The translations under genes and the position numbers were made by a program. DNA of 64,000 nt from Lentisphaeria bacterium (GTDB lineage Bacteria > Verrucomicrobiota > Lentisphaeria > Victivallales > UBA1829), in contig JAFVTF010000082.1 of assembly GCA_017503375.1 (NCBI GenBank), positions 62,001-126,000 on the forward strand. Direction: 5' to 3'. Within the stretch, counting starts at the first letter, position 1. Every line of letters begins with the position of its first letter. Below are positions 1,425 through 60,323 of this stretch, piece by piece. The notes beneath the pieces were generated by a model. The model was not told the origin of the DNA. It made no database searches and saw only the letters and a list, made by a program, of their open reading frames with translations.

Positions 1425-4400
1425 ATAAAACAATCTGCTCAGCCTTGTTTGCGGTGATCGGTTTATTGCCGGTTACGCTGAATGCAAAGCTGGTTTATGG
1501 GACAGATGCCCGGGATGCTTCCGGGCGTCCTGTCAGAATTATTGAACAGATCAATACCGATGGCTCAGGGCGGAAACAGTTGATTTCCTCTGATTTCAAA
1601 GGGGAGAATTTCTGGCCCGGATATCGCGGATTCGGGCCGACTCAATTTGAATACTCTGATATGAATGATCAGGGCGATTTGATTTTTACCAATACTTATA
1701 ATTTCTTTGTTATTCCATCCGGTGGGAATGTTATTTACAATCTGACCCGTTTCACCCGGGAAAAATATCAGCCGCGCTGGTCCCCTTGCGGGAAAAGAAT
1801 CGCTTTTGTGACAGATTTGAACAACAACTGCGAAATTTTTGTAATGAATTCCGATGGCACAGGAATGAAAAATATCTCCTGGAACAAAGCCACTCATCTC
1901 TCTCCTTCCTGGTCTCCCGACGGAAAATATATTTCTTTCATCAGCAACCGGAGCGGAAAATATGAACTTTATATTTCCGATGCTGAAGGTATCGCGCAGA
2001 AGAAGATTCTCTCCTTGCCGGAAGATATCCGTGAACCAGATTGGGGCCGCAATAACAGAATTATTTTTTCCGTGGTGAAAGCCGATGGTTCTGCGGAAGT
2101 GATGAGTGTCAATGCCGATGGAAAAGATTTGAAAAAACATTTTGCGACTTCAGCCTGGAGCGGACATGTCAGCTGGTCTCCGGATTGTGCAAAAATCGCC
2201 TATTCCTCCCAGCGTTCCGGTAATGCGGATATCTGGATTTATGATTTGAAAACAGGCAAACACTCCAATGTCACAAAGACACCTTTCAAGCAGGATTATT
2301 TCCCCCGCTGGGTGAAACCTGCCAAGTCCGCACGAACCAATAATTGGCAGCCGGATACTCAAGTGATAGCGGATTCCAAACTGACCATGGATGGCAGAAC
2401 CGGAGAAAAACCGACTCTATCCATGCCGATCGTGATTCCCCCGGTGAAATTGGAACGTCCGCGTATTCTCTTTACGGCCAAAGATTTGCCGGTAATACGA
2501 AAGCGTTTTGAACAGGAACCCTACAAGACATACTGGACGAGGTTTTTGAAAAAATGCGATGGATTCCTGATTGATCCGAAAGTGGAAGCTTCTCTGAAAA
2601 AGATTCCATCCGATCCTTTGCGGAAAAAATATGCAATTCCTGCATTTGCAGAACTTTATTACCGGGAATTGTGGGTGGACGCAATGATGTCTCTAGCCTT
2701 TGCCCGTCAGATCACTGGAAAGGAAAAATACGGCAAACGTGCCGTGGAAATTCTGCTGAAAGCAGCTGAGATTTACCGTTATGCTTATGGTGTCATGCAT
2801 TCCGATTACCGGACAGCCTGCACTTATGACTGGGTCTATGATCTCATTCCGAAAAAAGATTTGAAAGCATTGAATGTGCTTTTGAAAGTTTCCATGGATG
2901 GGAAAAAAGATACTTGTCTGAATCATCATTGCGGGGTTTACGGTGCAGCTCCCGGCAATGGGAATTATGCCGTTTACTTTGCCGCATCTCTCGGTCCCAT
3001 GGGCTTTGCCATGATGGGCGAAGAAGGGATTTCTGATGATTATAAACTCATAGCGGAACGTCTCTCTCTGCTTGCCCTTAATAAATGGATCGGAGAAAAT
3101 GGCGATGCGGAAGAAGGGTTCTCCTATTTCCATCACCCGGTCGGAGAGCTGACACCTTTCCTTGTAACATTGAAAAAACATAATCAGGCTGGTGCTCTTT
3201 TGGACTCCAACCTGAAAAAGATTCCCGGTTGGATGGCTGTTTCTGCCATGAAGGGCGGAACGGAAACTCCGGCGATCGACGATGCGGATTATCTTGCCAT
3301 GAGATTGCCGACTGGGTTACTGGAACTCTATCCCGAAGATCAGATTCTGAAGAAAGTCTGGAACAGTGTTCCCCGCAAACCTTCTGAATTGACTTCTGTT
3401 CTTGGCTTACTCTGGTGGCAGCCGTCGGAAGGAAAACTGCAGAACTGGGGGAAAGGCGGATTGCCGGACTATGGATTCTATCCCCATCAGGGCTATGCAG
3501 TCCTCCGAACCGGGGAGAAACTGGAAGATTCCGTCTTGACTGTTTCTGCTCCGCAGGGGTCCGGTCATGCTCATCTGACCTATGGCGCGCTATCCCTGAC
3601 CTCCCGAGGACTGCGGCTTTTGACTGAGCCCGGACAAGCGGTTCCAATGAGTGAATATCACAGTCAAATCCTTGTCAACGGGGAAGGGCGCAACCGCAGT
3701 TCATTGTCAAGACCCATGTTGAAAAAGCCTGTCTCTGATGGCAAAACTGTATCCGTTTCTGTTGATTTTACGGAGGCCTTTGCTGTATCTTTCTTCGGGG
3801 CTCCCGGTTATTCCGGAATTCCCTGCGGCAGGGCAGGAATAAAAGAAGGGAAGCGGATTGTGACCATGGTCAAAGCTGCAGATGGAATTCCTGCATATTA
3901 TCTGGTTTATGATAAAGTCGATGCCGGAAAAAAAGTGAAAGTTGAACAGCTTTTTACAGCAGATCAGGGAATGAATGCAGGTGTCAGAGCTTCATCCAGA
4001 CAGACAAGTCTGGTGATTGATGACGCCTTTACCAAGGGGTATTATCAAAGTTCAGATTCCAAAGATCAGGCTGAATGGACCATTCAGGTTCCGAAGAAAG
4101 GGAAATGGTATCTTCATCTTTATGCCCGGGATGGAGCTCCGGTTTCCTTGGAAATCGACGGCAAAAAATATGCCGTGACCTACATGCATCCCTATTCCCG
4201 TCCGGACACTTGGCAGTGGCGGCATTTCCGGATGAAAAACAAACCGTTCTTTGTAGAACTTGAGGCTGGAGAACATAAAATAACCCTGCGGTCCAAGGCA
4301 AAGATTTATGCCGTTGCCCTCTCTGAAAAAAGTGATATCTATTTAGGCGCAGATCCGAAGAAAGAGCTGATTATGAAACTTTCCGATGCCAGACGGACCG

Positions 4401-4708
4401 GTACAGGATGGAAATGGATGGAATCGGAACAGACAAAACTTCATTTGATTCCAATGATCGGGAAACCGGAGCTTCAGATTACCCGGAAGATTTTCAATAC
4501 CCGGTTCCACGGACAGCTTCAAGTCAGTCTGCCTCAGGGGAGCTTTTCTCAAAACGGCGAAAAGGTGGAATTCCTGACATTTGTTTATCCTGCCGCTCCG
4601 GGAATGGAACTGCCGGAAATCAAAGATGGTAAAATCATCTGGAAGAATGCTGTTGACCATGTTGTTATTGAAAAAGATCATATAAAAATAAGGAGAGTTC
4701 AGAAGTGA
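1421..4708 (+). CDS. Secreted TolB-type propeller / heparinase II/III-like fusion protein
   Basis: This 1095-residue protein begins with a signal peptide (MNKTICSALFAVIGLLPVTLNA). Residues about 20-300 carry PD40/TolB-type propeller repeats, visible as RWSPCGKRIAF, SWSPDGKYISF and SWSPDCAKIAY with aromatic/NxxIW partners. From about residue 345 (RPRILFTAKDLPVI) it reads as a heparinase II/III or DUF4962-type lyase: helical toroid with NHHCGVYGAAPGNGNY near 503-518, then a beta-sandwich with GYAVLRTG and GSGHAHLTYGALSL. The histidines and tyrosine in these motifs are plausible catalytic or substrate contacts by family analogy. It overlaps the upstream gene by 4 nt and the downstream gene by 4 nt, so it is the middle of an operon. 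The propeller may bind substrate. The exact glycan cannot be read from the sequence; uronic-acid-containing polymers are typical for the family. Confidence 0.75.
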   Translation: MNKTICSALFAVIGLLPVTLNAKLVYGTDARDASGRPVRIIEQINTDGSGRKQLISSDFKGENFWPGYRGFGPTQFEYSDMNDQGDLIFTNTYNFFVIPSGGNVIYNLTRFTREKYQPRWSPCGKRIAFVTDLNNNCEIFVMNSDGTGMKNISWNKATHLSPSWSPDGKYISFISNRSGKYELYISDAEGIAQKKILSLPEDIREPDWGRNNRIIFSVVKADGSAEVMSVNADGKDLKKHFATSAWSGHVSWSPDCAKIAYSSQRSGNADIWIYDLKTGKHSNVTKTPFKQDYFPRWVKPAKSARTNNWQPDTQVIADSKLTMDGRTGEKPTLSMPIVIPPVKLERPRILFTAKDLPVIRKRFEQEPYKTYWTRFLKKCDGFLIDPKVEASLKKIPSDPLRKKYAIPAFAELYYRELWVDAMMSLAFARQITGKEKYGKRAVEILLKAAEIYRYAYGVMHSDYRTACTYDWVYDLIPKKDLKALNVLLKVSMDGKKDTCLNHHCGVYGAAPGNGNYAVYFAASLGPMGFAMMGEEGISDDYKLIAERLSLLALNKWIGENGDAEEGFSYFHHPVGELTPFLVTLKKHNQAGALLDSNLKKIPGWMAVSAMKGGTETPAIDDADYLAMRLPTGLLELYPEDQILKKVWNSVPRKPSELTSVLGLLWWQPSEGKLQNWGKGGLPDYGFYPHQGYAVLRTGEKLEDSVLTVSAPQGSGHAHLTYGALSLTSRGLRLLTEPGQAVPMSEYHSQILVNGEGRNRSSLSRPMLKKPVSDGKTVSVSVDFTEAFAVSFFGAPGYSGIPCGRAGIKEGKRIVTMVKAADGIPAYYLVYDKVDAGKKVKVEQLFTADQGMNAGVRASSRQTSLVIDDAFTKGYYQSSDSKDQAEWTIQVPKKGKWYLHLYARDGAPVSLEIDGKKYAVTYMHPYSRPDTWQWRHFRMKNKPFFVELEAGEHKITLRSKAKIYAVALSEKSDIYLGADPKKELIMKLSDARRTGTGWKWMESEQTKLHLIPMIGKPELQITRKIFNTRFHGQLQVSLPQGSFSQNGEKVEFLTFVYPAAPGMELPEIKDGKIIWKNAVDHVVIEKDHIKIRRVQK

Positions 4709-5511
4709 ATATGCGTGATAAGTTTTGGATGTGGGGATATACTCAGGAAGTTCCCGGTTCAAATATTCCGTTTATCGGAAGTTTGAAAAGCCATTGCAGC
4801 CTGGAAACTGCTGCTGATTATTTCGGAATGAACAACACTGTTTTCATGAACAGTATGCATACATTGGACCGTCTGGAAGAAAATCTGGAACTGGTCAAAG
4901 GTTCCAACCAGATTCTGTGCGGATTGCCCCACGGCGAAAAAAATGCTGTGGAAGGTGCAAAAATCCTCAGTGAAATGTCCTTGAAATATCCGAATATCAA
5001 AGGGATCGTGCTTGATGATTTTCTTCAGCTTTCCGGACATCCGACCACACCGGAGCTTGTGAAAGCTGTCCGCGATAATCTCCGTTCCGCCAATCCGGAA
5101 CTGGAAATTTATGTGGTGATTTATTCTGATTTGAATCATCTGGATATTACACCGTATCTGGATTTGATTGATGGGATCATTCTCTGGCGATGGGTTTCCA
5201 CGGAACATTTCTGGAAAGCAGAATTCGGTTCTCTGATTCATCGCTTCAAGGAAATTTACAAGAAGAAACTTCTGCATGGACTTTATATTCAGAATTATGG
5301 GGAATACTCTTCCGGAGCGCATCCCATTGACTTTGAACTCTGGAAACTTCAGTGCATGAAGGTGCTTTGCGCCATGCGCGGAAAATATGCGTTTCTGGAT
5401 GGATGTGTTCTGCTTCAGAACGGCTGGGTGGCAAATCCGGAATTCCGGGATCATGTTGTCTGGCTGAAAGAAACGATTGATTGGTTCTGCGGAACCACGA
5501 CCATACGATAA
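4705..5511 (+). CDS. Conserved-looking cytoplasmic protein of unknown function, barrel-like
   Basis: 268 residues, no signal peptide and no membrane segment. I do not recognise the family. The alternation of hydrophobic strands and amphipathic helices (IKGIVLDDFLQL, LEIYVVIYSDL, LIDGIILWRW, LLHGLYIQNYGEY) suggests a TIM-barrel fold, and the acidic LDDF and aromatic ends of strands could form a sugar site. The start is taken as GTG at 4705, 8 nt after AGGAGA; the next ATG at 4711 is possible but further from the ribosome binding site. It overlaps the preceding lyase gene by 4 nt and is followed after 13 nt by an oxidoreductase gene, so it probably acts on monosaccharide products of the lyase operon. 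This role is inference only. Confidence 0.6.
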   Translation: MNMRDKFWMWGYTQEVPGSNIPFIGSLKSHCSLETAADYFGMNNTVFMNSMHTLDRLEENLELVKGSNQILCGLPHGEKNAVEGAKILSEMSLKYPNIKGIVLDDFLQLSGHPTTPELVKAVRDNLRSANPELEIYVVIYSDLNHLDITPYLDLIDGIILWRWVSTEHFWKAEFGSLIHRFKEIYKKKLLHGLYIQNYGEYSSGAHPIDFELWKLQCMKVLCAMRGKYAFLDGCVLLQNGWVANPEFRDHVVWLKETIDWFCGTTTIR

Positions 5512-5524
5512 GGAGATCTTGAAA

Positions 5525-6514
5525 ATGTTGAAACTTGCAATGCTGGGCAGCCGCGGACATTTCAATTATGTTTTTATGGATGCCGATGCTCTCAAAAAAA
5601 TGGCGGATATTACCTGTCTTTCCAGCGGGTGCGAAGATTCTCCCCAGCGGTTGATCGACCGTTGTGCGGAGTTCGGATTTCAGCCGAAAGTCTATGATGA
5701 CTGGAAAGAGATGCTTGATACAGAAAAGCCCGATGTGGTTTGTGTTGACGGCCCCTTTGAAAAACATGCGGAAATGAGTGCTTATGCTCTCCGGAAAAAT
5801 ATTCATGTTTTTTGCGAAAAGCCCATTGCTCTGACTTATGAACAGCTTGATCTTGTTAAAGATGCTCTGAAAGTCAGCAAAGCACGGATCATTTCCATGG
5901 TGGGAATCCGTTACATGACACCGTTCTATCAGGCAGCTCAAATGGTTCGTCAGGGGGCGATCGGAAAGATCAAACTGATCAGAACCCAGAAATCATACAA
6001 ACTGGGAACCCGCCCTCCGTTTTACAGCAGCCGTGCAACATACGGCGGAACCATCGGCTGGGTGGGAAGTCATGCACTGGACTGGATCATGTATTTCACC
6101 CAGGATACTTTTGAATCTGTCAGCGCCATTCAGACTTCAGAAGACAACTTCGGCAATGGTGAAATGGAAATTGCAGCAAGCTGTCAGCTGCGGATGAAAT
6201 CCGGAATTCTTGTGAGTGCCACAATGGAATTTCTGCGTCCCTGGGCAGCTCCGACCTGGGGTGATGACCGGATCCGTCTGGCTGGAACCGAAGGTGTTCT
6301 GGAAATCCGTGATGAAAAAATCCATCTGATCGACAAGGACGGAGCCCGTGTGATTGAGCCGGAAGATACCGGTATGACGATTTTTGCCGATTACATGGAA
6401 GAACTCTCCGGAGGAAAACCGGCAATCGTCACAACAGAAGAAACAATCGAACTTACCAATGCCTGTTTGAAAGCGCAGGAAGCTGCTGATACAGGTAAAA
6501 TCATTTATTTTTGA
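5525..6514 (+). CDS. Gfo/Idh/MocA family oxidoreductase
   Basis: 329 residues. The N-terminal Rossmann part (LKLAMLGSRGHFNYVF) is followed by the CVDGPFEKHAEMSAYAL and HVFCEKPIALTYEQLDLV stretch; the EKP motif near residue 98 is diagnostic of the Gfo/Idh/MocA family. The C-terminal half contains GGTIGWVGSHALDWI and the beta-sheet dimer domain. The family oxidises or reduces sugars, inositols and related polyols with NAD(P). The dinucleotide motif is GSRGH rather than the common GxGxxG, so cofactor preference is unclear. The ATG at 5525 is chosen because AGGAG lies 9 nt upstream; an in-frame ATG at 5477 would overlap the previous gene and lacks such a site. The next gene encodes a second, divergent member of the family. 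Confidence 0.88.
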   Translation: MLKLAMLGSRGHFNYVFMDADALKKMADITCLSSGCEDSPQRLIDRCAEFGFQPKVYDDWKEMLDTEKPDVVCVDGPFEKHAEMSAYALRKNIHVFCEKPIALTYEQLDLVKDALKVSKARIISMVGIRYMTPFYQAAQMVRQGAIGKIKLIRTQKSYKLGTRPPFYSSRATYGGTIGWVGSHALDWIMYFTQDTFESVSAIQTSEDNFGNGEMEIAASCQLRMKSGILVSATMEFLRPWAAPTWGDDRIRLAGTEGVLEIRDEKIHLIDKDGARVIEPEDTGMTIFADYMEELSGGKPAIVTTEETIELTNACLKAQEAADTGKIIYF

Positions 6515-7681: not shown

Positions 7682-7845
7682 AAGCAGGAACTGTCAGCGA
7701 AAGCCAAGGGTGTCCATCGTGAGGTGGAATCTGAAAGAAGTCAATAGCAAAATCCCGGTCTATTGCTGAACCGCTGTATGCCGAACGGCACGTACGCGGT
7801 ATGAGAGGATGGTTGCTCCAATAAGGAGCAATCTCCAGCTCGATT
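7682..7845 (+). mobile_element. Group II intron remnant (part of domain I joined to domains V and VI)
   Basis: No protein is encoded here. The 3' part matches a group II intron end: 7770-7774 pairs with 7796-7800, 7776-7778 with 7793-7795, and 7779-7782 with 7787-7790 around the loop GAAC, leaving the two-base CG bulge at 7791-7792 that is typical of domain V. A single unpaired T at 7775 breaks the lower stem. Domain VI follows as a perfect 7-bp hairpin (7813-7819 with 7825-7831), then CTCGAT at the likely 3' end. The upstream part (about 7684-7745, with GTGAGGTGGAATCTGAAAGAAG) resembles the 5' region of bacterial group II introns as I remember them. The reverse transcriptase and domains between are missing, so it should be immobile alone. 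Confidence 0.75.
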
Positions 7846-7872
7846 GCATGGGAAAACAGATTTTAACTTCAG

Positions 7873-11278: not shown

Positions 11279-11479
11279 AGCGATGTTCCCCATACAGGTT
11301 GGTAAATCCTTCTGCTATTTCAACTTTAAGATGGCATTTCGATTTTTACATCGTAAAAATCGGAATGCCGCAAAAAGGTTTGGAAAAAAGGGGTGGAGTT
11401 TGAGGAGGGGAAAAAGGACCTTTCCTGAAAAGGGCTTTTTCCCCTCCTCAAGTAACAACCTTTATTGGGAACAGAGCTT
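11279..11479 (-). repeat. Short inverted-repeat element, family A, copy 1 (MITE-like)
   Basis: About 201 bp with imperfect 25-bp terminal inverted repeats (20 of 25 positions agree): AGCGATGTTCCCCATA at the left and, as reverse complement of the right end, AGCTCTGTTCCCAATA. The interior matches copies at 14481-14680 and 51688-51888 in the opposite orientation (shared segments: TTTAAGATGGCATTT, GGAATGCCGCAAAAAGGTTTG). No coding capacity. It ends 7 nt behind the pdxR stop codon. Flanks are AT-rich with no clean target duplication. It fills most of the gap 11164-11486; the rest holds the promoter at 11213. Confidence 0.85.
11402..11449 (-). terminator. Perfect 15-bp hairpin in element A copy 1, likely pdxR terminator
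   Basis: 11402-11416 is exactly complementary to 11435-11449 (GAGGAGGGGAAAAAG against its reverse complement), with an 18-nt loop. Transcripts leaving pdxR run through it. The T-run lies inside the stem rather than after it, so efficiency is uncertain. Confidence 0.5.
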
Positions 11480-13896: not shown

Positions 13897-14475
13897 ATGA
13901 AAAAAAGAGTAGCAGTCCTTGCATTGCAGGGAGATTTTGCTGAGCATGAAGATTCTCTCCGGAAATGTGGCGCTGAAACATTCCAGATCCGTCAGAAAGC
14001 GGATCTGGAACAGCAGTTCGATGCCCTTGTTATCCCCGGCGGGGAAAGTACCGTTATCGGAAAACTGCTCCGGGAACTGGACCTTTTTGCACCTTTGCAG
14101 GAGAAAATCAGAAACGGTCTGCCTGTCCTGGCGACTTGTGCCGGGTTGATCCTGCTGGCGGATAAAATCGAAAATGACTCAAAAGAGCACTTCCGGACGT
14201 TGAATGTAACCGTCAAGCGGAACGCCTACGGACGTCAGTTGGGAAGTTTCTGTACCACCGGGAAATTTGCTGATATGGAGAATGTTCCCATGTCATTTAT
14301 CCGGGCTCCTTCCATCGAATCTGCGGGAACAGGTGTAACGGTTCTTTCTGAGTTCAACGGAAAGGCAACTGCTGTAATGCAGGGGAAACAGGTCGCTCTT
14401 GCCTATCATCCGGAATTGCTGGAAGATTGCAGAATCTATCAGTGGTTTCTTGACTGCATTGTTTCCGGAAAATAA
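13897..14475 (+). CDS. pdxT: Pyridoxal 5'-phosphate synthase, glutaminase subunit PdxT
   Basis: 192 residues. PdxT hydrolyses glutamine and channels ammonia to PdxS. Motifs are complete: VLALQGDFAEHE at the start, PGGEST near residue 47, the nucleophile cysteine in LATCAGLILLA near residue 79, GSFCTTGKF in the interface region, and the His/Glu pair in AYHPEL near 170. It is the second gene of the pdxST operon. Its stop codon is followed after 5 nt by a family A repeat whose hairpin probably ends the transcript. Confidence 0.97.
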   Translation: MKKRVAVLALQGDFAEHEDSLRKCGAETFQIRQKADLEQQFDALVIPGGESTVIGKLLRELDLFAPLQEKIRNGLPVLATCAGLILLADKIENDSKEHFRTLNVTVKRNAYGRQLGSFCTTGKFADMENVPMSFIRAPSIESAGTGVTVLSEFNGKATAVMQGKQVALAYHPELLEDCRIYQWFLDCIVSGK

Positions 14476-14480
14476 TTTTT

Positions 14481-14680
14481 GGCTCTGTTCCCAATATGGG
14501 TTATTTTGTGATCGGGGAAGAAGGGAAAAAATTTTAAGGAAATTTTTTCCCTTCTTCCCCGAACCCCATCATCCTTTTTCAAACCTTTTTGCGGCATTCC
14601 GATTTTTGCAGCGCAAAAATCAAAATGCCATCTTAAAGTTAAGTGGAAGGATTTACCAACACATACAAGGAACAGAGCTT
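14481..14680 (+). repeat. Short inverted-repeat element, family A, copy 2 (MITE-like)
   Basis: 200 bp. The left end GGCTCTGTTCCCAATA and the reverse complement of the right end (AAGCTCTGTTCCTTGTA) are inverted repeats. Interior: a hairpin at 14513-14561, then CCTTTTTCAAACCTTTTTGC and an imperfect stem formed by GGCATTCCGATTTTTG and CAAAAATCAAAATGCC (about 14592-14628). Same orientation as the copy at 51688. Flanks share TAATTTTT on both sides, a possible 8-bp target duplication. No coding capacity. Confidence 0.88.
14513..14561 (+). terminator. Perfect 21-bp hairpin in element A copy 2, likely pdxST terminator
   Basis: 14513-14533 pairs without mismatch with 14541-14561 around a 7-nt loop. 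The stem has G-rich then A-rich arms, so it could terminate transcription from either side. It lies 37 nt behind the pdxT stop codon. Confidence 0.6.
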
Positions 14681-14691
14681 AATTTTTTTAC

Positions 14692-25328: not shown

Positions 25329-25404
25329 ACGGCTCTGTTTACCAGCCGGATTTAAAGCTCTGTTCCCAATACGGGTTGGTAAAGTAAACTTTGTTTGATT
25401 TTTT

Positions 25405-26772
25405 TCAAAAATCATTTAACATTTTCGTCTTTTGTGCTAACTCCATATTTTCTAAATAGCGCTTCAGCAAGAAGGCGCAAAAATAGGGAAATGTTGTAAT
25501 GGTTTCGGTTTTTCCAATGTTTGAATGTGCAAATTTTATCCCATGCTGTATTGCCGGATAATGTTCCGAAGTAATCAAATTACGCAGAGAACGGGAAACA
25601 TTGCTGCCTGCTTTGACTTCAACCGGCAGTAATTCACTGGCTGTCCGCACAAAAAAATCTTCTTCCAGAGAGCCGTCTTCACGACGGTAATAGTAAAGAT
25701 CATATCCGGATTTAGAGAGAGCTTCTGCTATAAAATTTTCATACAGAGCACCTTTATAGACACCAAGGTTTTTATTTCTTCTTAAATCCATTCCGGCTTC
25801 TTCATCCAGCATTGCGATCAGGAGTCCGGTATCAGCAACATAGAGTTTGTATTTCGATTCATCATAATTCCCTTTTAACGGTAATTCAGGGAAATTCAAA
25901 CAATAACAAATAGAAATGACTCCGGCATCCAGCAGCCATTCCACACAACCGAAATACTCTCTTGATCTTGCTCCTTTTCCAACCTTTGTAAGCTGAAATT
26001 TTTTATTTTCTTTTGCCAGCTGCGGTGCGATATGGTTAAAAACAGCTTGTATTCTGGTTTGATCCAATCCTTCTGCATATTTCCGTATATCTTCCTGGTA
26101 ATCCAGCAAAAGCTGCTGTTGAATCTGCAATGTCCTTTCAAAAGTTTTATTCTGGACAAAATCTTTTATGACGGCCGGCATTCCGCCAACTAAAATATAA
26201 TCCATAAACAGCGAGGAATATTTTACCATTTCTGCGTTAGAAAACGGCTGAATATTTTTCATATGGGAAAGCATGTCATTTGTAATATCATCAGAATAAC
26301 CGACCGCCCACAGGAATTCTTCAAAATCAAAAGAACGCATGTCATAATCTGTTTTATAGCCCACACTGTAAGAAGAAACTTTTTTATAATGGATCCCCAA
26401 TAATGAACCGCTGCAAATAACATCATATTTTTCATCTTGTTTAAAGAATTTCAATGATGTTGCAATTTCGGGAAAGTCTTGAATTTCATCGAAGAAAATC
26501 AATGTTTTTCCAGGAACAAACTGAAAGCCAGGATTGATCCGGGAGAGCAGTTTGATGATCTTCTCCGGATGGAAACCCTCTTCCACGATTGCTTTATATT
26601 GGGGCAGTTCCACAAAGTTTATTTCGACGACATTTTCATAGTTTAAGTTTGCAAAATGCCGGATCGCTTCTGTTTTTCCAACCTGTCTGGCACCACGGAT
26701 AACTAACGGTAAGCGATTTATGTCCTTATGCCATTTTTCTAAAAAAACATCTATTTTACGTCTGAAATACAT
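25405..26772 (-). CDS. AAA family ATPase with C-terminal DUF4143
   Basis: 455 residues from the ATG at 26772, chosen because GGAG lies 6 nt upstream; an ATG four codons earlier has no good site. Walker A is VIRGARQVGKTEAI near residue 26, Walker B is TLIFFDEIQDFPE, and the sensor region CSGSLLG follows. The C-terminal DUF4143 part contains YVADTGLLIAMLD and the restriction-nuclease-like fold motif LYENFIAEAL..YYYRREDGSLEEDFFV..LLPVEVKAGSN, where E-x-K may form a nuclease-like site. This family is common, often multicopy, and its cellular role is unresolved. The gene has AT-rich codon use unlike its neighbours and is enclosed by inverted repeats, both hints of transfer. Confidence 0.92.
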   Translation of the reverse strand: MYFRRKIDVFLEKWHKDINRLPLVIRGARQVGKTEAIRHFANLNYENVVEINFVELPQYKAIVEEGFHPEKIIKLLSRINPGFQFVPGKTLIFFDEIQDFPEIATSLKFFKQDEKYDVICSGSLLGIHYKKVSSYSVGYKTDYDMRSFDFEEFLWAVGYSDDITNDMLSHMKNIQPFSNAEMVKYSSLFMDYILVGGMPAVIKDFVQNKTFERTLQIQQQLLLDYQEDIRKYAEGLDQTRIQAVFNHIAPQLAKENKKFQLTKVGKGARSREYFGCVEWLLDAGVISICYCLNFPELPLKGNYDESKYKLYVADTGLLIAMLDEEAGMDLRRNKNLGVYKGALYENFIAEALSKSGYDLYYYRREDGSLEEDFFVRTASELLPVEVKAGSNVSRSLRNLITSEHYPAIQHGIKFAHSNIGKTETITTFPYFCAFLLKRYLENMELAQKTKMLNDF

Positions 26773-26839
26773 CTTGATCTCCATTCTCTATACCATCGTT
26801 GAATAATATAATTTTATAAAAGGTGTTTTCAAGTTCAAA

Positions 26840-26935
26840 ATCACAAAATTCGGAGTTTTTTCTTTCGTTTTATCACAAAATTCGGAGTTTTTTCTTTCGT
26901 TTTATCACAAAATTCGGAGTTTTTTCTTTCGTTTT
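26840..26935 (-). repeat. Three perfect tandem 32-bp repeats in the ATPase leader
   Basis: Units 26840-26871, 26872-26903 and 26904-26935 are identical, each containing ACAAAATTCGGAG followed by a T-rich tract. They have no spacers, so this is not a CRISPR array. They lie 68 bp before the ATPase start and 10 bp from the right inverted end, and could be binding sites for the ATPase, a control protein or a transposase. The rest of the 317-bp gap 26773-27089 holds the right end (to 26968) and the GH78 promoter. Confidence 0.95.
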
Positions 26936-27028
26936 AAGACTCTTGCCAACCCATATGGGGAACCGAGCCTATCTTTATTATCTGCATATTACGGCAGACA
27001 CGAAAAAGAAAACTTTTTTTTCTTCCGC

Positions 27029-51130: not shown

Positions 51131-51711
51131 TGAAAAAAGTTTTTTTTCTTGACCGTGACGGCGTGATCATTGAAGATGCCAATTACCTGAGTTCTCCGGA
51201 ACAGGTCGTTCTCTGTCCGGGAACTCCGGAAGCGTTCCGGATGATCAAAGCCGCCGGTTATGAAATCGTGGTTGTTTCCAATCAATCCGGAATCGCAAGA
51301 GGATATTTTACATACGATGATCTTGCAAAGGTTGAAAAACACATAGAAAACTGTCTGACAGATGCCGGAGCTCCATTGCCGGCAGGATGGTATTACTGTC
51401 CGCATCACAAGAAAGGCTCTGTTGCGGAATATGCTGTTGACTGTGATTGCCGGAAACCGAAACCGGGATTACTGCTTGCAGCAAAGAAAGAATTGGATAT
51501 TGACTGCGGGGAATCTTTCATTATCGGAGATAAAGTTTCCGATCTGGAATCCGGTTTTGCGGCTGGCTGTAAAGCAGGAGTTCTGGTCTTGACCGGACAT
51601 GGGACGGAACAGGAACTGAAACCTTTGGAAAAACCTTATGAAACAGCTCCGGAAATTCTTGAAGCTGTGAAACTTCTGTTAAAAAAAGGCTCTGTTCCAA
51701 ATAAAGGTTGA
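51127..51711 (+). CDS. gmhB: D-glycero-beta-D-manno-heptose 1,7-bisphosphate 7-phosphatase
   Basis: 194 residues. HAD-family: FFLDRDGVIIED near residue 6 with the nucleophile aspartate, VVVSNQSGIARGYF, the zinc-binding CPHHKKG...DCDCRKPKPG loop near 97-118, and FIIGDKVSDLESGFAAGC. It removes phosphate from heptose bisphosphate in lipopolysaccharide precursor synthesis, complementing gmhA. The last seven codons (GSVPNKG) and the stop are made by the left end of a family A repeat starting at 51688, so the natural C-terminus was altered by an insertion. Confidence 0.92.
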   Translation: MMKKVFFLDRDGVIIEDANYLSSPEQVVLCPGTPEAFRMIKAAGYEIVVVSNQSGIARGYFTYDDLAKVEKHIENCLTDAGAPLPAGWYYCPHHKKGSVAEYAVDCDCRKPKPGLLLAAKKELDIDCGESFIIGDKVSDLESGFAAGCKAGVLVLTGHGTEQELKPLEKPYETAPEILEAVKLLLKKGSVPNKG

Positions 51712-51888
51712 TTTTAGATCGGGGAAGAAGGAAAAAATTCCTCAAAAGTTTTTCCCTTTTTCCCTGAACCTCATCATCCTTTTTCAAACCTTTTTGCGGC
51801 ATTCCGATTTTGCAACGAAAAAAATCAAAATGCCATCATAAAGTTTTAATAGTAGAATGATTTACCAATCCTTATGGGAAACAGAGCT
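51688..51888 (+). repeat. Short inverted-repeat element, family A, copy 3 (MITE-like)
   Basis: 201 bp, left end GGCTCTGTTCCAAATAAAGG and right end (reverse complement) TAGCTCTGTTTCCCATAAGG. Same orientation as copy 2 and shares CATCCTTTTTCAAACC and GGCATTCCGATTTT inside. The hairpin region (about 51720-51767) is imperfect here. The element starts inside the gmhB coding region. Flanks share TAAAAAAA on both sides. Together with the promoter at 51906 it explains the 256-bp gap to the next gene. Confidence 0.88.
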
Positions 51889-60276: not shown

Positions 60277-60323
60277 TCTGTTCCCAAGAAAGGTTGATTT
60301 GAGATCGGGGAAGAAGGAAAAAA
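60277..60323 (+). repeat. Fragment of inverted-repeat element family A (left end only)
   Basis: TCTGTTCCCAAGAAAGG and the following GATCGGGGAAGAAGGAAAAAA match the left ends of copies 2 and 3. The first three end bases and the rest of the element are missing. It begins immediately after the Sel1 terminator T-run. Confidence 0.75.

What the first reader, a model, noticed from the sequence alone, without database searches (positions are those of the whole stretch)
25357..26968. AAA/DUF4143 ATPase gene enclosed by the same inverted ends as a family of short elements
The ends at 25357 and 26968 match each other inversely (20 of 24 positions) and match the terminal repeats of three short elements at 11279, 14481 and 51688. 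The only cargo is an AAA ATPase of the DUF4143 family, a widespread multicopy family with unresolved function. If the unit is mobile, it would explain how these ATPases spread, and the short elements could be its deletion derivatives or share a transposase acting in trans. The visible facts are the ends and the cargo; mobility is inference.
Basis: partly seen in the sequence, partly recalled or inferred. Interest (0 to 1): 0.75.

Follow-up and report, generated by a model that had tools for sequence, protein, structure and literature searches.

The report
Nuclease-ATPase gene with repeated promoter sites
A very common but unexplained bacterial ATPase-nuclease gene (a proposed anti-virus gene) sits here between two ends of a local short transposon family; those ends do not explain how the gene spreads, but the gene, like its relatives across many phyla, carries 3-4 repeated sites exactly 32 or 33 bases apart in its promoter, a pattern not found described in the paper library searched.

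Summary
The inverted ends are real. They belong to a large miniature-transposon (MITE) family in this genome: 255 end matches (control 0), about 200-bp elements, 8-bp target duplications. They enclose one AAA_14-DUF4143 gene. The inference that these ends mobilise the ATPase is not supported. The unit has no target duplication and is the only case in its genome. None of its six closest orthologue loci (67-79% identical, some in another family) has the ends, and no transposase with these ends was found. No clean empty site exists in congeners.

Following the gene led elsewhere. In front of it are three 32-bp repeats. Across 79 DUF4143 loci from many phyla, 56 have a significant upstream repeat, and 51 of these are spaced exactly 32 or 33 bp; among about 140 other genes 2 do. 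Cores are 94% identical while spacers are nearly random, and the motif tracks the protein. In Bacteroidales plasmids the same compact unit (array plus gene, no inverted ends) has replaced hipA with sharp edges. AlphaFold gives AAA+ / winged helix / PD-(D/E)xK.

Best reading: a transposase-less [operator array + ATPase-nuclease] cassette (PADLOC candidate defence PDC-S01), probably self-regulated, lying between MITE ends by landing or capture. Self-binding and defence are inferred.

The parts
25356..25378 (+). left inverted end (MITE-type terminal repeat)
   Evidence: homology to the 52-bp mini element of L021 continues to 25392
26947..26969 (-). right inverted end (MITE-type terminal repeat)
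   Evidence: 20 of 24 positions match the left end inversely
25405..26784 (-). AAA_14-DUF4143 ATPase-nuclease gene, 459 aa, matches PADLOC PDC-S01
   Evidence: E 6.9e-155
25837..26064 (-). winged helix-turn-helix, residues 241-316 (three helices, two-strand wing)
   Evidence: AlphaFold model pLDDT 91.3, pTM 0.91; reading of the secondary structure
25486..25830 (-). DUF4143 / PD-(D/E)xK nuclease-type domain, residues 319-433; E349, E374, D376, E389, K391
   Evidence: E349, E389 and K391 invariant in both alignments, E374 invariant or at least 90%, D376 invariant in the 14-sequence alignment
26840..26936 (-). promoter-proximal array: three tandem 32-bp units, core CTCCGAATTTTGTGAT on the gene strand
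   Evidence: the exact core occurs only these three times in the genome
26805..26832 (-). putative promoter TTGAAA-16-TATATT directly downstream of the last array copy
   Evidence: read from the sequence; not tested
11279..11478 (+). MITE of the same end family, no clear target duplication
14481..14679 (+). MITE of the same end family with 8-bp duplication TAATTTTT at 14473-14480 and 14680-14687
51688..51888 (+). MITE of the same end family, A-rich flanks

Best explanation
The region holds a compact, transposase-less gene cassette: an AAA+ ATPase with a winged helix and a PD-(D/E)xK nuclease domain, together with its own array of operator sites in the promoter. The array (3-4 sites of about 16-18 bp, centres 32 or 33 bp apart, three helical turns, on or just upstream of the promoter) is most likely bound by the gene's own product, cooperatively and on one face of the DNA, and keeps expression low until the protein is titrated or switched. 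The cassette spreads between bacteria as [array + gene] by recombination that does not need the inverted ends seen here. In this genome it lies between two ends of a lineage-specific MITE family, probably because it landed in or between such elements. Shown: ends, MITE family, array, its fixed spacing across phyla, tracking of motif with protein, sharp cassette edges in plasmids. Inferred: self-binding, repression, mode of insertion, any defence role.
For: Array generality: 56 of 79 loci from many phyla and archaea have a significant upstream direct repeat and 51 of those 56 are at spacing 32 or 33 out of 49 spacings allowed; 18 of 30 relatives from the own class, all at 32 or 33. Control genes in the same contigs: 14 of 142 significant, 3 at 32/33, one of which is itself a DUF4143 gene. 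Among 136 inter-copy distances 120 are 32 or 33. Cores 94% identical, spacers 0.32-0.47 against 0.29 random. Motif similarity follows protein identity (0 of 2000 permutations). The exact core occurs only at this gene. In 44 of 53 arrays with a -10-like hexamer the nearest copy overlaps it or ends within 35 bp upstream. Model: AAA+, winged helix, PD-(D/E)xK; Foldseek matches include Orc1/Cdc6 on origin DNA, RuvB, MalT, Avs. Cassette edges: in Bacteroidales plasmids the unit replaces hipA, left junction in hipB about 10 bp outside the array, right junction about 5 bp after the stop codon. L213: array abuts a 161-bp direct repeat, which resumes about 10 bp after the stop. Window: 10 bp from array to right end, 12 bp from stop codon to left-end homology.
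Against: No binding or expression data. About a third of the loci show no significant array by this test. The 32/33 spacing could serve a host factor rather than the ATPase; common descent alone also makes motif and protein correlate. The plasmid replacement is one clear event. The tight fit of the MITE ends around array plus gene is also what a captured, end-mobilised cassette would look like, and the window has no clean pre-insertion site.
Confidence: 0.6

Rival explanations
1. Mobile insertion cassette: the ATPase unit is a transposable cassette with MITE-type ends, mobilised in trans by the transposase that also moves the short elements.
For: Matched inward-facing ends at both sides with almost no spare sequence; MITE family active enough to leave 8-bp duplications; elements with two ends of this subtype and other contents exist (L018).
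Against: No target duplication at the unit, single copy, none of the orthologues has the ends, no transposase with these ends found, MITE targets are 87% A+T while the left flank is GGATTTAA.
Confidence: 0.2
2. Coincidence of two independent MITE insertions or remnants on either side of an ordinary horizontally acquired gene, in an intergenic region that attracts MITEs.
For: More than 250 ends in 3.6 Mb; in both congeners the region upstream of the right-hand gene also holds MITE or MITE-like pieces; ends unequal (20 of 24) and no shared duplication.
Against: Both are solo ends facing inward, of the same less common subtype, and lie within about 10 bp of array and stop codon.
Confidence: 0.2
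3. The promoter arrays are not operators for the ATPase itself but recognition sites for a host regulator, or cis sites used by the nuclease for insertion or replication (iteron-like).
For: Array is included inside the moving unit at its very edge; iteron-like form; Orc1/Cdc6-like fold matches.
Against: Motif follows protein across phyla rather than host (the window core is shared with a Lachnospiraceae locus 56% identical in protein); exact core absent elsewhere in the own genome; position on the promoter.
Confidence: 0.25

Closest known systems
PDC-S01, candidate phage defence gene (PADLOC; AAA ATPase fused to PD-(D/E)xK)
   Same: Whole-length profile match; same domain make-up; PMC12988326 reports it as the fourth most common defence across prokaryotes, with multiple transfers between domains and experimental validation pending for most candidates of this kind.
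   Different: The passages read do not mention a promoter array; defence activity is not shown for this gene.
Mobile insertion cassette (MIC231, qnrD mic element; PMC3913671)
   Same: Gene without transposase bracketed by imperfect inverted repeats; the qnrD cassette has two 24-bp repeats with six mismatches.
   Different: No target duplication, no partner insertion sequence found, homologues lack the ends.
MITEs (miniature inverted-repeat elements)
   Same: About 200-bp non-coding elements with about 22-bp terminal repeats and 8-bp duplications in A+T-rich targets.
   Different: The parent transposase is unknown; the ATPase unit shares only the ends.
Restriction-modification genes that insert with long target duplication (cited in PMC3154945)
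   Same: Several DUF4143 units are flanked by direct repeats of 34-338 bp.
   Different: Seen in a minority (9 of 96, one of them the array itself); the window unit shows none.
Orc1/Cdc6 initiators and MalT-type STAND regulators
   Same: AAA+/STAND core plus winged helix; in the Orc1/Cdc6 match the protein is bound to origin DNA.
   Different: Adds a PD-(D/E)xK domain; low whole-chain TM-scores (0.2-0.4).

Membership tests
PDC-S01 / AAA_14-DUF4143 ATPase | AAA_14 and DUF4143 domains and full-length PDC-S01 profile | tested here: met
PDC-S01 / AAA_14-DUF4143 ATPase | intact Walker motifs and PD-(D/E)xK residues | tested here: met
   G36 K37 D99 E100 E349 E389 K391 invariant; E374 invariant or at least 90%, D376 invariant in the 14-sequence alignment
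PDC-S01 / AAA_14-DUF4143 ATPase | protection against phage | not testable with these tools
   needs experiment; unvalidated in the literature read
Mobile insertion cassette | cargo bracketed by inverted repeats, no transposase inside | tested here: met
Mobile insertion cassette | duplication of the target site | tested here: not met
   GGATTTAA / TATCTTTA, 3 of 8
Mobile insertion cassette | ends shared with an insertion sequence whose transposase can act in trans | tested here: inconclusive
   ISL3 copies have other ends, IS1595 absent, other families not searched
Mobile insertion cassette | same cargo with the same ends at more than one site | tested here: not met
   only one such gene in the own genome; no orthologue with the ends
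MITE (the short elements) | terminal inverted repeats, non-coding, multicopy, fixed-length target duplication | tested here: met
Insertion with long target duplication | long direct repeats bounding the unit | tested here: not met
   not in the window; 9 of 96 relatives against 4 of 138 controls, two of those controls being ATPase genes

The most novel reading that the evidence does not exclude
The DUF4143 ATPase-nuclease is itself a transposase-less mobile element: the protein recognises its own 32/33-bp-spaced array, which marks one edge of the moving unit, and its nuclease opens the target so that [array + gene] inserts with long duplication or replaces neighbouring genes such as hipA.
Probability: 0.12. 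Interest if true: 0.9.

Novelty: new variant of a known kind. Interest (0 to 1): 0.6.

Why it matters
PDC-S01 is counted among the most common candidate defence genes of bacteria and archaea (PMC12988326), yet neither its trigger nor its regulation is known. A promoter array with invariant spacing, matched to each protein, says that these proteins probably bind DNA at their own promoter in a fixed oligomeric form. It gives a ready DNA ligand for biochemistry and a handle on specificity. It also suggests that the unit that travels is array plus gene, so annotation of such genes should include the array.

Tried and rejected
Autonomous partner of the ends: ISL3 hits exist but their ends differ; IS1595 transposase absent; other transposase families not searched for lack of searches. 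Empty site in congeners: left and right neighbours are not adjacent there, so none. Insertion of the unit into the 52-bp mini element: left end fits for 37 bp, right end does not. General flanking inverted repeats in other DUF4143 loci: at chance level in 72 loci apart from L149 and L213; L149 looks like IS605-type ends by inspection, L213 is a direct duplication. Acinetobacter and Vibrio plasmids as further filled/empty pairs: no clean empty site.

Full report
Observation. The two inverted ends at 25356-25378 and 26947-26969 are present and match at 20 of 24 positions. They belong to a family with 255 matches in the 3.6-Mb genome and none for the reversed control pattern (118 against 0 with a longer pattern). 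The family is seen in the two congeners (39 and 35 matches) and, diverged, in two other genera (11 and 23), and is otherwise essentially absent from 61 related genomes. The short elements are MITEs of about 200 bp with 8-bp target duplications, for example TAATTTTT around the 14481 element, CATTGCAA in L097 and AATGTTAA in L103. Of 56 complete elements 25% show a duplication at 7/8 or better, against 3% in shuffled pairing, and targets are 87% A+T.

The enclosed gene. The only cargo is a 459-aa AAA_14-DUF4143 protein that matches the PADLOC candidate defence profile PDC-S01 end to end. AlphaFold gives a confident model (pLDDT 91.3, pTM 0.91): an AAA+ core, a three-helix, two-strand winged helix at 241-316, and an alpha/beta domain with the E349 / E374xD376 / E389xK391 pattern expected of PD-(D/E)xK nucleases (the domain reading is mine). 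Foldseek matches include Orc1/Cdc6, RuvB, MalT and Avs proteins, all with low whole-chain TM-scores.

Are the ends the vehicle? Probably not for the family. The six closest orthologue loci (67-79% identity, two in a different family of the order) have no such ends, and neither do 23 more distant DUF4143 loci as a pair. Both congeners lack the gene. The unit has no target duplication (3 of 8 matches). ISL3 transposases in the genome have other ends and IS1595 transposases are absent. The flanking genes are not neighbours in the congeners, so there is no clean empty site; MITE or MITE-like pieces lie upstream of the right-hand gene there too. The left end continues into a sequence shared with a single 52-bp mini element. 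A trans-mobilised cassette in the sense of MIC231 remains possible but fails the target-duplication test (definition in PMC3913671).

The array. Between gene and right end are three 32-bp tandem units. The same kind of array precedes the orthologues and distant relatives, with different sequences. A scan of 18-nt windows over spacings 24-50 gave 18 of 30 loci significant, all at 32 or 33. An independent set of 79 loci from named genomes of many phyla and archaea, scanned over spacings 16-64, gave 56 significant, 51 of them at 32 or 33. Of 142 other genes in the same contigs 14 were significant and 3 were at 32/33, one of which is a DUF4143 gene. Complete plasmids agree in part: Segatella, Parabacteroides, Glaesserella, Fusobacterium and one Acinetobacter locus show 32 or 33; the Bacteroides 98-kb plasmid, R. 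albus and Vibrio loci do not pass this simple test. Of 136 distances between copies 120 are 32 or 33, and arrays mostly have 3 or 4 copies. Cores are 94% identical while the spacers are close to random, so the spacing looks kept by selection rather than left by recent tandem duplication. Motif similarity follows protein identity. The exact core occurs only three times in the own genome, all here. Arrays overlap or directly precede -10-like hexamers.

Mechanism. A protein with a winged helix whose own promoter carries matched sites with a fixed three-turn spacing is most simply an autoregulator that binds its sites as a regular oligomer. This is inference; no binding was measured.

What moves. 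In 98-kb Bacteroidales plasmids the ATPase lies where related plasmids have hipB-hipA: the left junction falls inside a truncated hipB about 10 bp outside the array, and homology resumes about 5 bp after the ATPase stop codon. In a Prevotellaceae locus (L213) the array abuts one copy of a 161-bp direct repeat and the other copy starts about 10 bp after the stop codon. Other units have direct repeats of 34-338 bp at somewhat larger distance. Overall 9 of 96 loci (one being the array itself) against 4 of 138 control genes, two of which are themselves ATPase genes, one of them DUF4143. This resembles the long target duplications reported for restriction-modification genes (cited in PMC3154945), but the excess is modest. 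In the window the same edges hold: 10 bp from array to right end, 12 bp from stop codon to left-end homology. So the compact unit [array + gene] is the recurring thing, and the MITE ends are one local setting of it.

Literature. The library holds one paper naming DUF4143, a table entry for a Thermus gene near a CRISPR locus, and three naming PDC-S01. PMC12988326 ranks PDC-S01 fourth among defences across prokaryotes, infers multiple transfers between domains and states that validation is pending for most such candidates. No description of the array was found, which covers open-licence papers only.

Noticed in passing
L002 (G000:C20), about 700-900: The second DUF4143 gene of this genome (a divergent subtype) has an inverted pair of sites, GTCGAAACTTGGTC and GATCAAGTTTCGAC, around its promoter instead of a direct array.
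   Followed up: partly
L078, L091, L213, L150, L086: Long direct repeats (34-338 bp) flank DUF4143 units, including a duplicated groEL 3' end in L078.
   Followed up: partly
L233 (NZ_CP072253.1) against L239 and L240: The ATPase unit has replaced the hipA genes of a HipBA operon on Bacteroidales plasmids, leaving a truncated hipB.
   Followed up: yes
L235 (Glaesserella parasuis plasmid) 2501-6284: A DUF4143 ATPase lies directly beside a type III restriction-modification system.
   Followed up: no
window 7713-7867: Rfam match to a group II intron domain (RF02001, E 1.2e-4).
   Followed up: no
L021 (C90:16126) and L015 (C43:32035): Very short (about 45-52 bp) elements with the same terminal repeats, apparently the smallest members of the MITE family.
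   Followed up: partly
L149 flanks: A DUF4143 gene between inverted copies of what look like IS200/IS605-type ends.
   Followed up: no
window 60280-60297: A solo partial copy of the terminal repeat (GTTCCCAAGAAAGGTTGA).
   Followed up: no
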